Origin: an uncultured Nitrosomonadales bacterium
GTDB taxonomy: Bacteria > Pseudomonadota > Gammaproteobacteria > Burkholderiales > Gallionellaceae
Direction: 5' to 3'
DNA length: 38,554 nucleotides
NCBI GenBank assembly: GCA_903861075.1
Contig: CAIOSY010000091.1
Location: 1 to 38,554, forward strand
This document shows, piece by piece, positions 34,938-38,554 of the stretch (positions within the stretch are counted from its first letter, which is position 1; each line of letters opens with the position of its first letter). A program made the position numbers and the translations under genes. Under the pieces are notes generated by a model. That model worked only from the letters and a program-made list of their open reading frames with translations. It searched no databases and was not told the DNA's origin.

Positions 34938-35090
34938 ATGATAAATAAAGAACCTTACCAGCAGTCTTATTATCCTCCGGCACCGACTGGATTTACCCGC
35001 TATATGAGAACATCACTCATCTGGCAGAGTCTGCGCTTTCTCATCATCAACTACAAAATACTTAAACTTATGATGAAGTCACATCACTAA
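34938..35090 (+). CDS. 50-aa small protein downstream of the SQR-like gene
   Basis: Manual translation MINKEPYQQSYYPPAPTGFTRYMRTSLIWQSLRFLIINYKILKLMMKSHH*; RBS aaaggag 18 nt after the SQR-like stop. Confidence 0.65.
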   Translation: MINKEPYQQSYYPPAPTGFTRYMRTSLIWQSLRFLIINYKILKLMMKSHH

Positions 35091-35138
35091 CTGATTTTAC
35101 GCAGCCCGAAGAGTTTAAGCGCTGTAAAGAACAAGCCG

Positions 35139-35402
35139 TTGCGCTTGAAGATTCTTTCCCGCCTACAGGAGGTTGCAGTTGACTGGTGGCAACCAGAGCA
35201 ATTTTGGGATAAGCATCAGGCTTTGCTCGATGAGCTACACCCAAACGACTTCGACTCTCAAACCAGTGGGTTCGATATGATGCAATTGGGCGGAAGTCTG
35301 GAACAGTTTGGCGGCGGGATGAAACCCAAATCACAGTGGGGAGGTGTACTCAGCGTACACACGTTGCACGTCGCCAAAGGGTTGTCCGTTCCCGGAATGT
35401 GA
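35139..35402 (+). pseudogene. Possible decayed coding remnant (unidentified)
   Basis: Protein-like composition (VDWWQPEQFWDKHQALLDELHPNDFDSQTSGFDMMQLGGSLEQFGGGMKPKSQWGG) and a second protein-like stretch TDFTQPEEFKRCKEQAVALEDSFPP just upstream in another frame, ended by a stop. Confidence 0.35.
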
Positions 35403-35651
35403 TGAACCGTTACGATATGTGAGGTCGCACCCTGCGTGCAATCAATTGCACTGTAACTGCGCACAGCGTTGAAAGTTGCGATGACAAGTATCAGCAGGTT
35501 TTTCTGCTGCAATATCAACGCTATGTCAGTCTAAATTGCATGAGTGTCGGATTGGCGTAGTCAGCATCCTGAGTATCAATAATGTTCAATTATCAACAGC
35601 CAGAAACAGGCTCGATCACGCCCGCTATAGAGGGAATCTCACGTGTGCGAA

Positions 35652-36350
35652 TCAATTGTGGCTGGACTTCCAGCTCATCAGTCCATTGGTCGCGGATGGA
35701 TAAAATTTGGGACGCTGGTCAATAGCCAGTGCCGGGAAGACGTTTTTCCAATAGTCCCGCCCCATGTACTCAATCCTGTTGCCGCCGTTATCACCGGAGC
35801 CTGTTGGAACCCATTTGAGCCAGACCCTACGTGGCTTTGGGGAGATCGTTATGCAGAAGATGTTTGCTCTGTCCCACATTTGAAACAGGTCGATGTCGAG
35901 GTTCATCATGCACCAACGGGCAAACTCATCCTTAGAAACTTCACCGTCCTCAACGCAGTAAGGCAGAATATCCACGCGGGTGTAGATGGTGTTCTCGCCG
36001 CCATAGCCGAATGTACCCCGATCCCAGTGATGAGGGGTGCTCGAATGCCTGCGGTCAATTTTTTCCTGCTCAGTGAATTGGCGTTCCATCGTGTCGCGAT
36101 TCTGGTAGCCAAAGGTAATAGCGAAATGTCCGAACTGGGCAAGTATTGGCTCAAGTACCTTGCTGCATAGCAGCTTGCCGGACGCGACAACTTGCTCAAC
36201 ATCATCTGTAGGAAAATTGCTATGCCCGCAAACTGCGGCCTCGGTCGAAAGCATAAAATCACGGAGGATGAAATGCTTGGAGAGACGGGTTAATGAAAGC
36301 TGTTCGTATCGCTTGTAGAGCTGATTATTAAATGTCATGTTGCCACCCAC
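35652..36350 (-). CDS. Uncharacterised protein, paralog of 37550-38236; possible peptidase M15A-like fold
   Basis: Shares LTRLSKHFILRDF, FGYQ, RVDILP.CVEDG and RANIFC.TISPKPRRVW with the other paralog; M15A-like spacing of HF.L..F, ITFGY, PH and VD. ATG at 36338 is an alternative start. Confidence 0.75.
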   Translation of the reverse strand: MGGNMTFNNQLYKRYEQLSLTRLSKHFILRDFMLSTEAAVCGHSNFPTDDVEQVVASGKLLCSKVLEPILAQFGHFAITFGYQNRDTMERQFTEQEKIDRRHSSTPHHWDRGTFGYGGENTIYTRVDILPYCVEDGEVSKDEFARWCMMNLDIDLFQMWDRANIFCITISPKPRRVWLKWVPTGSGDNGGNRIEYMGRDYWKNVFPALAIDQRPKFYPSATNGLMSWKSSHN

Positions 36351-36356
36351 ACGTGG

Positions 36357-36920
36357 TTAGTTATTAAGGCCAAGTGCTTCGATTGCGGCGGCAACCTCTG
36401 GGCGCAACTCCCAAACCCACTCCTTTTCATCAGCCACCTTGTCGCGCTCGTTGGTAAGCATGAATGTATAAATCAATGTGCCGTCAGTACGGCGAGGGAT
36501 TTCAAGGGGGTATTCTTCATATAGGGCTTTACCTAAATTGCCGTACTGAAGATTGGCGGCACTGTGATTCAGGTAGTCAGCGGATTTTGCAAGCTCGGTG
36601 GCGGTAATCCTGTGATGGGGCGCGTGATAATGCGCACGCAGCATCGCCAGTTGCCCGTCTGTCAGGTCTTTCAGGATGTTGCGGAAAGCCGCCACGTAGT
36701 CTTCCGTATTGGTTGGCTGCTGGCGACCTGATGCAATGGTTGCAAATTGATCGTCAACGAATTCCCGTAATTTATCCAGAACGTCATCAATGCTGCCACC
36801 CTCGATTTCAGCGAGCAGCTTCTTGTTTTTCCATATCCGACCTTTGTACGCGCCGCCATGAAAAGCGGAAAGCAACGTATGTCGCCGGTACTCTTCTGTA
36901 GTTCTGTCGCTCAATTGCAC
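36357..36920 (-). CDS. Uncharacterised protein with an ITATELA...AANLQYGNLG motif (possible restriction/HNH-associated domain)
   Basis: 187 aa; MLRAHYHAPHHRITATELAKSADYLNHSAANLQYGNLGKALYEE...WVWELRPEVAAAIEALGL. GGAGG followed 5 nt later by TTG suggests a start at 36914. Confidence 0.7.
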   Translation of the reverse strand: MQLSDRTTEEYRRHTLLSAFHGGAYKGRIWKNKKLLAEIEGGSIDDVLDKLREFVDDQFATIASGRQQPTNTEDYVAAFRNILKDLTDGQLAMLRAHYHAPHHRITATELAKSADYLNHSAANLQYGNLGKALYEEYPLEIPRRTDGTLIYTFMLTNERDKVADEKEWVWELRPEVAAAIEALGLNN

Positions 36921-36955
36921 CTCCGTGTGCCTTAGTATTGCGCAAGCGCACGAAT

Positions 36956-36970
36956 CTACGATATTCGTAG
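36956..36970. promoter_or_regulatory. Putative operator copy 1
   Basis: CTACGA-TAT-TCGTAG, perfect 6-bp inverted repeat with 3-nt spacer, in the divergent intergenic region. Confidence 0.65.
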
Positions 36971-36988
36971 AGCAAAGGCAAGGCCAAT

Positions 36989-37003
36989 CTACGACTATCG
37001 AAG
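36989..37003. promoter_or_regulatory. Putative operator copy 2
   Basis: CTACGA-CTA-TCGAAG, same motif with one mismatch, centre 33 bp from copy 1, ending just before the XRE start codon. Confidence 0.6.
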
Positions 37004-37004
37004 A

Positions 37005-37283
37005 ATGGTTAAGCCTCCATCACAGCCCCAGAATCTATTCGGTCAGCGTTTGCGCGAGGCTCGACTTCGTGCCGGAATTGCGCAGGATAAGTTGGGGGTG
37101 ATGATCGGACTTGACGAAGGATGTAGCAGTGCGCGGATGAGCCGATACGAAAACGGTGTGCATGAGCCTCCATTTGCCATTGCAGAGCAACTCGCAAAAG
37201 TGCTGGGGATTTCTGCGTGCTACTTGTACTGTAGAGACGATAAACTCGCCCAAATCATTCTTGAGTATTCAGGAAAAAGCTAA
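37005..37283 (+). CDS. XRE-family helix-turn-helix regulator
   Basis: FGQRLREARLRAGIAQDKLGVMIGLDEGCSSARMSRYENGVHEPPFAIAEQLAKVLGISACYLYC. Confidence 0.9.
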   Translation: MVKPPSQPQNLFGQRLREARLRAGIAQDKLGVMIGLDEGCSSARMSRYENGVHEPPFAIAEQLAKVLGISACYLYCRDDKLAQIILEYSGKS

Positions 37284-37492
37284 ACCTCATCGAAGTCGTA
37301 CAAGTTACGCCAACATGACGAACGCACATCCTCAATCGGGTTTGAAATCCCGTAAGGAAGTTCAGCGACCCGTAAATCCCCCTGTATCCACATCAAATCC
37401 GACTGCAATCATTGCACTTGGATTACCTCCAGATTTATTCCGATTGGCCGGTACGACATGTGCAGCCGGAAGTATGCAACTCGTTGATTTAT

Positions 37493-37520
37493 TTGACAAA
37501 TTCACCAAACCTGCTATAAT
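37493..37520 (+). promoter_or_regulatory. Consensus sigma70 promoter upstream of the M15-like paralog and integrase
   Basis: TTGACA - 16 bp - TATAAT, both hexamers perfect; about 29 nt upstream of the ATG at 37550. Confidence 0.8.
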
Positions 37521-37549
37521 TATCACATGAAAAACAAGCACTTACAGCG

Positions 37550-38236
37550 ATGAATCAGTTGGGTCTATTCCCCAAACCCATCAAAAATTACAGGGCGAAG
37601 TTTCGCCAGTACGACGACCTCGCACTCACCCGTTTATCGAAGCACTTCATCCTCCGCGACTTCCTGTTTTCGACCGAGTCAGCCGTACTCGGCCTGAACA
37701 ACCTCCCTGAAGATAACGAGATGGTCATCCGGGCAGGCAAAGCCCTGTGCGAAAAAATCCTTGAGCCGATCATCGCCCAGTTTGGCGATCTGAGTATCAC
37801 CTTCGGCTATCAGTGCCGGGAAGCGATTGAATACGGACTGAGCGCAGACAGGCTCGTCAATCCGCGCAGCAGCAGTCCTCACCAGTGGGATCGCTCCACC
37901 TTTGGCAATGAGGTTTATGCCCGCGTGGACATCCTGCCGTTCTGTGTTGAAGATGGCGCGGTCGGCAAGCATGAGTTTGGACACTGGCTGATGCACAACT
38001 TAGATTGTGACCTCTGCATGACTTGGCATCGCGCCAACATCTTCTGCCTCACGATTTCCCCCAAACCTCGGCGGGTCTGGATTGAGTGGGGCGAACCATC
38101 ACTGGGGCAACCGAAACGGCGTGACATCATGGGCACGCATTACTGGCGGGAGATTTACCCCAACCTGCCAGAGCATGAGATGCCGAAGTTTGCGCCCTCC
38201 CGCACCCGAGGCAGCTTACGCTGGAGTGGTGACTGA
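37550..38236 (+). CDS. Uncharacterised protein, paralog of 35652-36350; possible peptidase M15A-like fold
   Basis: 228 aa; LTRLSKHFILRDFLFSTESAVLGLNNLPEDNEMVIRAGKALCEKILEPIIAQFGDLSITFGYQ...SSSPHQW...RVDILPFCVEDG. Confidence 0.8.
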   Translation: MNQLGLFPKPIKNYRAKFRQYDDLALTRLSKHFILRDFLFSTESAVLGLNNLPEDNEMVIRAGKALCEKILEPIIAQFGDLSITFGYQCREAIEYGLSADRLVNPRSSSPHQWDRSTFGNEVYARVDILPFCVEDGAVGKHEFGHWLMHNLDCDLCMTWHRANIFCLTISPKPRRVWIEWGEPSLGQPKRRDIMGTHYWREIYPNLPEHEMPKFAPSRTRGSLRWSGD

Positions 38237-38238
38237 CG

Positions 38239-38554
38239 ATGCTCTTTCCGGTCATCCTTCCCAGCAATGAACTCCCGACACTACCCGAGTTTGAGCAAAC
38301 AGCAGTGGAAGGCTACCTCAGAGCATCCGTATCAGAAAACACATGGCGGGCATATCGGGATGACCTGAAGCACTTTAGCGAATGGGGTGGCACACTACCA
38401 GCCACGCCAGAACAGGTCGCCGCCTACCTCGCCCACTTCGCCCCCATCCACGCGGTTTCCACCCTCGCCAGACGGCTGGCAAGCCTCTCCAAGGCTCACC
38501 GGGTCGGCGGCTATATCAACCCCATCAGCACGGAGCTAGTTCGCTCCACGCTGC
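38239..38554 (+). CDS. Tyrosine recombinase / site-specific integrase, N-terminal part (truncated by window end)
   Basis: MLFPVILPSNELPTLPEFEQTAVEGYLRASVSENTWRAYRDDLKHFSEWGGTLPATPEQVAAYLAHFAPIHAVSTLARRLASLSKAHRVGGYINPISTELVRSTL, a phage-integrase N-terminal SAM-like domain. Confidence 0.88.
   Translation, partial: MLFPVILPSNELPTLPEFEQTAVEGYLRASVSENTWRAYRDDLKHFSEWGGTLPATPEQVAAYLAHFAPIHAVSTLARRLASLSKAHRVGGYINPISTELVRSTL

What the first reader, a model, noticed from the sequence alone, without database searches (positions are those of the whole stretch)
35652..38554. Accessory cassette with two inverted paralogs, a divergent regulator and an integrase: candidate undescribed system
Layout: [M15-like paralog A - AANLQYGNLG protein] <- operator region -> [XRE regulator] ... 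consensus promoter -> [M15-like paralog B - tyrosine recombinase]. The paralogs point in opposite directions, and one is packed directly against the recombinase. None of the ORFs other than XRE and Int resembles a standard mobile-element module, and the sequence is visibly more GC-rich than the flanking core. Inference: a small integrative element or cargo module whose paralogs act with, or are regulated alongside, recombination.
Basis: partly seen in the sequence, partly recalled or inferred. Interest (0 to 1): 0.78.

Follow-up and report, generated by a model that had tools for sequence, protein, structure and literature searches.

The report
Mobile cassette with dead-peptidase paralogs
At the edge of a foreign DNA insert in a bacterial genome sit two related proteins built like a cell-wall-cutting enzyme whose catalytic residue is missing, beside a restriction-type genetic switch and a DNA recombinase; relatives of these proteins are sometimes fused to, or lie beside, DNA-modifying and DNA-restricting proteins, so they may be parts of a little-described defence toolkit.

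Summary
The observed layout is real. Window 35091-38554 is the left edge of a horizontally acquired island; homology to same-genus genomes stops at 35090. It holds an X-A operon on the minus strand, a divergent controller, and a B-Int operon behind a perfect sigma-70 promoter. The contig ends inside Int.

A and B (54% identical) are diverged Peptidase_M15_3 relatives: profile-profile probability 99.3%, and viral M15 structures are the best fold matches. The M15 catalytic Glu is Trp in A and B, and missing from every cytosolic relative examined. Those relatives include domains fused to phosphorothioation-associated methyltransferases, DUF6946, or a SWIM-like stretch in a phage. The 'XRE regulator' is a C.Csp231I-type controller with operators at -49 and -16, conserved in position upstream of most of six plasmid homologs. 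X shares a domain with GmrSD and HNH proteins.

One integrated system is not supported: no other genome searched has X-A or B-Int, and B moves alone with its promoter. Best reading: mobile-element cargo of catalytically dead M15 adaptor proteins serving DNA-targeting defence. The closest tested precedent is ShdB of Shield, but no RmuC gene lies near the family members tested. Function is inferred. Interest is moderate.

The parts
35652..36350 (-). Paralog A: M15-derived cytosolic protein (232 aa from GTG; likely start ATG 36338); second gene of the X-A operon
   Evidence: ORF; 54% identity to B; hhalign of the A/B-led alignment with M15_3 prob 99.3%; catalytic Glu replaced by Trp, third ligand Cys
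36357..36920 (-). X (AANLQYGNLG protein, 187 aa): stand-alone form of a domain also found in GmrSD (DUF262/DUF1524) and HNH proteins
   Evidence: Homologs; no convincing Pfam or NCBIfam family
36953..36971 (.). Distal operator AATCTACGATATTCGTAGA (CTACG-N5-CGTAG at -49 from the controller ATG)
   Evidence: Direct repeat and palindrome; the same position is conserved upstream of plasmid homologs
36986..37004 (.). Proximal operator AATCTACGACTATCGAAGA (at -16, flush with the controller ATG)
   Evidence: perfect counterpart in the Massilia plasmid L168, near-perfect in L165 and L170 by eye
37005..37283 (+). C.Csp231I-type controller (XRE/HTH, 92 aa), divergent from X-A
   Evidence: phmmer to PDB 3lfp (Csp231I C protein) 1.2e-23; PADLOC Control_protein 1.1e-20
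37493..37520 (+). Perfect sigma-70 promoter TTGACA-16-TATAAT with extended -10, ahead of B-Int
   Evidence: 12 of 12 match; preserved in Gallionella MAG L004
37550..38236 (+). Paralog B: M15-derived cytosolic protein, 228 aa
   Evidence: orthologs in L003 (62%), L004 (96% over 103 aa) and phage contig L036 (47%)
38239..38554 (+). Int: tyrosine recombinase, N-terminal 105 aa only, truncated by the contig end
   Evidence: PF02899 1.6e-6; related to 1022 plasmid records
35091..35108 (+). Island junction: CTGATTTTACGCAGCCCG, at the exact base after which homology to genus relatives ends
   Evidence: one other copy in the genome, C97:14902-14919, and none in 40 genus relatives

Best explanation
This is the left end of an acquired mobile element whose cargo is made of two separable units. 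Unit 1 is X-A, divergent from a C.Csp231I-type controller. Shown by sequence: the controller, its two operators, and an 84-bp intergenic space in which the operators lie between both genes. Inferred: the controller switches itself and X-A on or off according to its own concentration, as C proteins do in restriction-modification systems, delaying X-A expression after entry into a new cell. Unit 2 is B-Int, read from a strong constitutive-type promoter. Shown: A and B descend from the Peptidase M15_3 fold, have no visible signal peptide, and lost the catalytic Glu; a His, a nearby Asp and a Cys are kept at or next to the old metal-ligand positions. Inferred: they no longer cut peptidoglycan. They act in the cytoplasm as a (possibly zinc-holding) binding or adaptor module that partners DNA-targeting proteins. 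A would partner X, a domain otherwise found in GmrSD/HNH-type nucleases, much as the M15-fold protein ShdB binds and restrains the nuclease ShdA in Shield. The most likely role is accessory to defence or inter-element conflict.
For: M15 descent: hhalign prob 99.3%, E 7e-21, with the comparison set itself matching PF08291 at E down to 3e-21; best structural matches are viral M15 proteins, E 1e-6. Loss of the catalytic Glu in A, B and all related cytosolic proteins aligned with enough coverage. Defence links of the wider family: C-terminal domain of phosphorothioation-associated methyltransferases (L007/L118, L151, L152, weakly L153), fusion to DUF6946 (L181), neighbours BrxC and GmrSD, NACHT, a type I R-M locus with an X-domain protein between hsdR-like and hsdM-like ORFs (L012). 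X domain fused to DUF262/DUF1524 and HNH. Controller and operators; the reported Csp231I site is CTAAGN5CTTAG with about 18 bp between operators (PMC3115060), and here the gap is 18 bp. Precedent: ShdB is a cytosolic M15-fold protein that interacts with and lowers ShdA (PMC10270631). Island edge.
Against: Only some wide-family members have a defence gene as neighbour (roughly 4 of 13 inspected loci; several have none: L008-L011, L013, L120, L121). No other genome has both X and an A-type protein in the class sample. The closest controller homologs do not lie beside R-M genes, so a C-type controller is not proof of a restriction function. X carries no nuclease motif here. No RmuC gene lies near the M15-like genes in the genomes and plasmids tested. 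The B model is of medium confidence (pLDDT 66) and the X model is unusable (pLDDT 42).
Confidence: 0.4

Rival explanations
1. Two unrelated hitch-hiking units: X-A plus controller, and B-Int, simply lie side by side in a site that collects foreign DNA; the M15-like proteins are plasmid or phage genes with individual housekeeping roles for the element (replication, transfer or regulation), not defence.
For: B and its promoter occur without A, X or the controller in L004, and B lies in integrase-bearing L003; controller homologs sit beside TrfA/recombinase or a tyrosine recombinase on plasmids; many wide-family members have no defence neighbour.
Against: Fusions of the same fold to PT-associated methyltransferases and DUF6946, and placement in R-M, BREX, GmrSD and NACHT neighbourhoods.
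Confidence: 0.35
2. A and B are phage endolysin-type M15 peptidases or remnants of them that act on the cell wall.
For: Same fold and recognisable homology to phage M15_3 proteins; weak PHROG endolysin hit for B, E 0.009.
Against: The catalytic Glu is replaced by Trp in all four A/B-type proteins and the third metal ligand is Cys; no signal peptide, holin or lysis neighbours; ShdB, which shares the fold, did not affect E. coli growth when exported (PMC10270631).
Confidence: 0.07
3. B is an anti-restriction or immunity factor made constitutively by the element, and A its regulated paralog within the element's own X-A restriction-like unit (toxin-antitoxin-like logic).
For: B has a perfect constitutive-type promoter while X-A is divergent from a controller with operators; ShdB restrains its partner nuclease; an A/B-type protein is carried by a tailed-phage contig.
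Against: B occurs without X or A in another element (L004); X has no recognisable toxin or nuclease part here.
Confidence: 0.12

Closest known systems
ShdB of the anti-phage system Shield II/III (Pseudomonas)
   Same: Cytosolic protein of M15 fold, unlikely to act on peptidoglycan, found in defence or mobile-element DNA
   Different: Shield is defined by ShdA (RmuC nuclease), which is absent near A, B and the relatives tested; sequence relation to ShdB could not be tested because its sequence was not recovered from the collections searched
Peptidase M15_3 (PF08291)
   Same: Homologous core, His and Asp near the metal site kept
   Different: No Pfam match, catalytic Glu lost, third ligand Cys, longer C-terminus
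C.Csp231I controller proteins
   Same: About 50% identity over 76 residues; 5-N5-5 palindromic operators at -49 and -16, 18 bp apart
   Different: Lacks the two extra C-terminal helices; no methyltransferase or endonuclease gene beside it
TIGR04096 DNA phosphorothioation-associated methyltransferase (C-terminal domain)
   Same: Carries an M15-like domain with the catalytic Glu lost
   Different: A/B are stand-alone and have Cys instead of the third His ligand
GmrSD (DUF262/DUF1524) and HNH proteins carrying the X domain
   Same: Share the AANLQYGxLG domain with X
   Different: X here is stand-alone without a nuclease domain

Membership tests
Peptidase M15_3 (active metallopeptidase) | Homologous fold core | tested here: met
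   hhalign prob 99.3%; BFVD M15 matches
Peptidase M15_3 (active metallopeptidase) | Score above the Pfam cut-off | tested here: not met
   No Pfam hit for A or B
Peptidase M15_3 (active metallopeptidase) | Three metal ligands His/Asp/His | tested here: not met
   His kept, Asp one column away, third ligand Cys in A/B
Peptidase M15_3 (active metallopeptidase) | Catalytic Glu | tested here: not met
   Trp in A, B, L003 and L036; Phe or Tyr in relatives
Shield | ShdA with RmuC nuclease domain in the locus | tested here: not met
   The only RmuC of G000 is on contig C111; none near family members in the 11 genomes or records searched
Shield | ShdB homology | not testable with these tools
   No ShdB sequence recovered; the one Pseudomonas plasmid RmuC looked at has ordinary neighbours
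C.Csp231I-type controller | Sequence similarity to C.Csp231I | tested here: met
   1.2e-23 to PDB 3lfp
C.Csp231I-type controller | Two 5-N5-5 palindromic operators about 18 bp apart upstream of the gene | tested here: met
   PMC3115060. The proximal site is imperfect
C.Csp231I-type controller | Two extra C-terminal helices | tested here: not met
   Protein ends soon after residue 79 of the 98-residue match
C-controlled restriction-modification system | Methyltransferase and endonuclease genes | tested here: not met
   None among the five ORFs; the contig is cut on the right
GmrSD/HNH restriction | Nuclease domain with X | tested here: not met
   X has no DUF262, DUF1524 or HNH
Integrative element | Integrase | tested here: met
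   PF02899, partial
Integrative element | att repeats and an occupied/empty site | tested here: inconclusive
   Left break at 35090; possible junction motif; right end lies beyond the contig

The most novel reading that the evidence does not exclude
Catalytically dead M15 domains form a broad, unnamed family of cytosolic adaptor modules in DNA-targeting defence: stand-alone, fused to phosphorothioation-associated methyltransferases and DUF6946, and by fold ShdB. Here, two paralogs with a distinct His/Asp/Cys site serve a C-controlled X-A unit and a B-recombinase unit of a mobile element.
Probability: 0.3. Interest if true: 0.7.

Novelty: new variant of a known kind. Interest (0 to 1): 0.5.

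Why it matters
If the M15 fold was repeatedly stripped of catalysis and reused inside the cell next to DNA-modifying and DNA-cutting proteins, many genes now labelled 'peptidase M15' or 'hypothetical' would need re-reading. ShdB's role would then be one case of a wider principle that can be tested in laboratory E. coli. The controller result also shows that C.Csp231I-type switches and their operators are spread on plasmids outside restriction-modification systems.

Tried and rejected
No close relatives of B, X or Int turned up in viral contigs with single-sequence queries; the A2 alignment gave the phage copy L036 and many M15_3 proteins. Plasmid DNA search of 35000-38554: no match. X structure from one sequence: pLDDT 42, not used. 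B fold against PDB: nothing below E 1.7; PDB sequence search for X and B: nothing usable. Shield rejected as family because no RmuC lies nearby. An R-M system rejected because there is no methyltransferase or endonuclease. The Burkholderia THE68 hypothetical-integrase pair beside an X homolog was checked as a possible B-Int pair and is not: that protein is not M15-like. The divergent 187-aa protein beside a Mycetohabitans controller is not X. Literature searches for M15 in defence found only the Shield paper as relevant; the PT-system survey PMC10853773 does not mention an M15 domain.

Full report
OBSERVATION. The five ORFs described are present. The window is the whole contig C91 of a 2.3-Mb, 177-contig genome, so Int is cut off by the contig end. 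A (35652-36350, minus) and B (37550-38236, plus) are 54% identical over 216 residues and are the only two such genes in the genome. X (36357-36920, minus) precedes A, and the X stop lies 18 nt from the likely ATG of A (36338), so X-A reads as an operon. The regulator 37005-37283 is divergent from X, with 84 bp between them. B and Int are 2 nt apart behind a 12-of-12 sigma-70 promoter at 37493-37520.

ISLAND EDGE. DNA of seven same-genus genomes matches the left part of the searched stretch (73-78% identity). In four of them the match runs to 35088-35090 and then stops, and the DNA that follows in the relatives inspected is unlike the window. Everything to the right is acquired or highly variable DNA. 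GC is 0.519 against 0.456 to the left; B is 0.559 and Int 0.595. An 18-nt motif starts at exactly 35091 and has one other copy in the genome (C97:14902) and none in 40 relatives. It could be an att core or an insertion-sequence end; this was not resolved. In the 550 bp between 35091 and A, the one ORF tested has no Pfam match.

A AND B ARE M15-DERIVED, WITHOUT CATALYSIS. Neither hits Pfam, NCBIfam or PADLOC. tblastn found distant relatives on plasmids, one annotated 'peptidase M15'. An A/B-led alignment compared by profile with ten phage proteins, two of which were scanned and match PF08291 with E 3e-21 and 7e-18, gives probability 99.3% and E 7e-21. A model of B (pLDDT 66) matches viral M15 structures at E 1e-6 but nothing in the PDB. 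In a joint alignment the M15 catalytic Glu is Trp in A, B, L003 and L036. It is Phe in the wide stand-alone family and Tyr in the methyltransferase-fused domains. The first ligand His is invariant. Asp sits one column away in A/B. The third ligand is Cys in A/B, Asn in the wide family and His in the methyltransferase domains. There is no hydrophobic leader by inspection. These are therefore unlikely to be peptidases; whether A/B still bind metal is open. The ligand and Glu identities are read from M15 knowledge plus the alignment, not from a solved structure of this family.

RELATIVES AND CONTEXT. The A/B type proper is rare. It was seen in a Burkholderiaceae MAG behind an integrase and an HTH gene (L003, 62%). 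It was seen in a Gallionella MAG in an element with an integrase end, primase-helicase and UmuDC-like genes (L004, 96% over 103 aa). It was seen in a tailed-phage contig, fused to an N-terminal Cys/His stretch that resembles a SWIM finger but is not scored by Pfam (L036, 47%). In L004 the promoter and part of the upstream DNA are shared; the gene then breaks off after codon ~103 into tandem repeats that look like an IS21-type end (my reading). None was found in 400 order-level and 399 phylum-level genomes, although the wide family is in 25 of 399 (both counts include this genome). The wide family is fused to phosphorothioation-associated methyltransferases (TIGR04096; L007/L118, L151, L152, weakly L153) and to DUF6946 (L181). 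It sits next to BrxC (L043) and GmrSD (L119), NACHT (L014) and a type I R-M locus (L012). Several members have no defence neighbour at all.

X. Its conserved domain (AANLQYGxLG) occurs stand-alone or in DUF262/DUF1524 and HNH proteins. On plasmid PAG5 it lies between hsdR-like and hsdM-like ORFs. It is rare: 3 of 292 class genomes, against 11 of 292 for the M15-like family, and only this genome has both. A DNA- or modification-sensing role is inference from these fusions.

THE REGULATOR. It is about 50% identical to C.Csp231I over 76 residues (PDB 3lfp, 1.2e-23) but ends before the two extra C-terminal helices. Upstream lie CTACG-ATATT-CGTAG at -49 and CTACG-ACTAT-CGAAG at -16, 18 bp apart. 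The reported C.Csp231I site is CTAAGN5CTTAG with about 18 bp between operators (PMC3115060). Of six plasmid homologs, a perfect 5-N5-5 palindrome lies at -49 or -50 in four (CTACGN5CGTAG twice, TTACGN5CGTAA, CTAAGN5CTTAG) and at -75 in one; the sixth has a near-palindrome there. The proximal operator is perfect in Massilia and imperfect in the others where visible. The operator system is therefore very probably real. The five annotated homologs have no annotated R-M gene beside them, though the plasmid gene tables are incomplete, so the switch alone does not prove restriction.

MECHANISM. Shown: anatomy, homology, loss of the catalytic residue, operators, promoter, island edge. Inferred: the controller autoregulates and times X-A; A (and B) act as cytosolic adaptors of DNA-targeting proteins. 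The nearest tested precedent is ShdB, an M15-fold cytosolic protein that interacts with the nuclease ShdA, lowers its level and dampens its activity (PMC10270631). RmuC genes in the genomes and records tested lie away from the M15-like genes, so this is not Shield; it may work like it. Coupling of B to recombination is not supported beyond the shared operon.

VERDICT. The notable result is a family of apparently catalytically dead M15 proteins with recurrent links to DNA modification and restriction.

Noticed in passing
L118 4902-7532, L151, L152, L153: DNA phosphorothioation-associated methyltransferases (TIGR04096) carry a C-terminal M15-like domain beyond the described model, in most of the long copies seen (L153 only weakly, L150 not); the catalytic Glu is missing.
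   Followed up: partly
L165-L170 upstream of HTH genes: C.Csp231I-type regulators are common on plasmids (392 records), mostly with 5-N5-5 palindromes at a fixed distance from the ATG, and with no annotated R-M genes beside the five annotated ones inspected.
   Followed up: partly
window 35091-35108 and G000:C97:14902-14919: An 18-nt motif CTGATNTTACGCAGCCCG marks the synteny break and occurs once more in the genome and in no genus relative; att core or insertion-sequence end not resolved.
   Followed up: partly
L122 2977-4128 (Pseudomonas phage UF_RH6): Protein annotated 'DNA polymerase III alpha subunit' matches the M15-like profile in its N-terminal part (a second stretch only weakly) and no Pfam family; the annotation looks wrong.
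   Followed up: partly
L004 8001-8400: The Gallionella MAG copy of B breaks off after about codon 103 into tandem repeats resembling an IS21-type end, at the contig edge.
   Followed up: partly
L012 9029-12700 (P. aeruginosa plasmid pPAG5): A type I R-M locus with an X-domain protein between hsdR-like and hsdM-like ORFs, preceded by an M15-like gene and an HTH/pRiA4b-ORF3-like gene.
   Followed up: partly
L181 1267-2565 (G670): DUF6946 fused to the M15-like domain in one 433-aa protein.
   Followed up: partly
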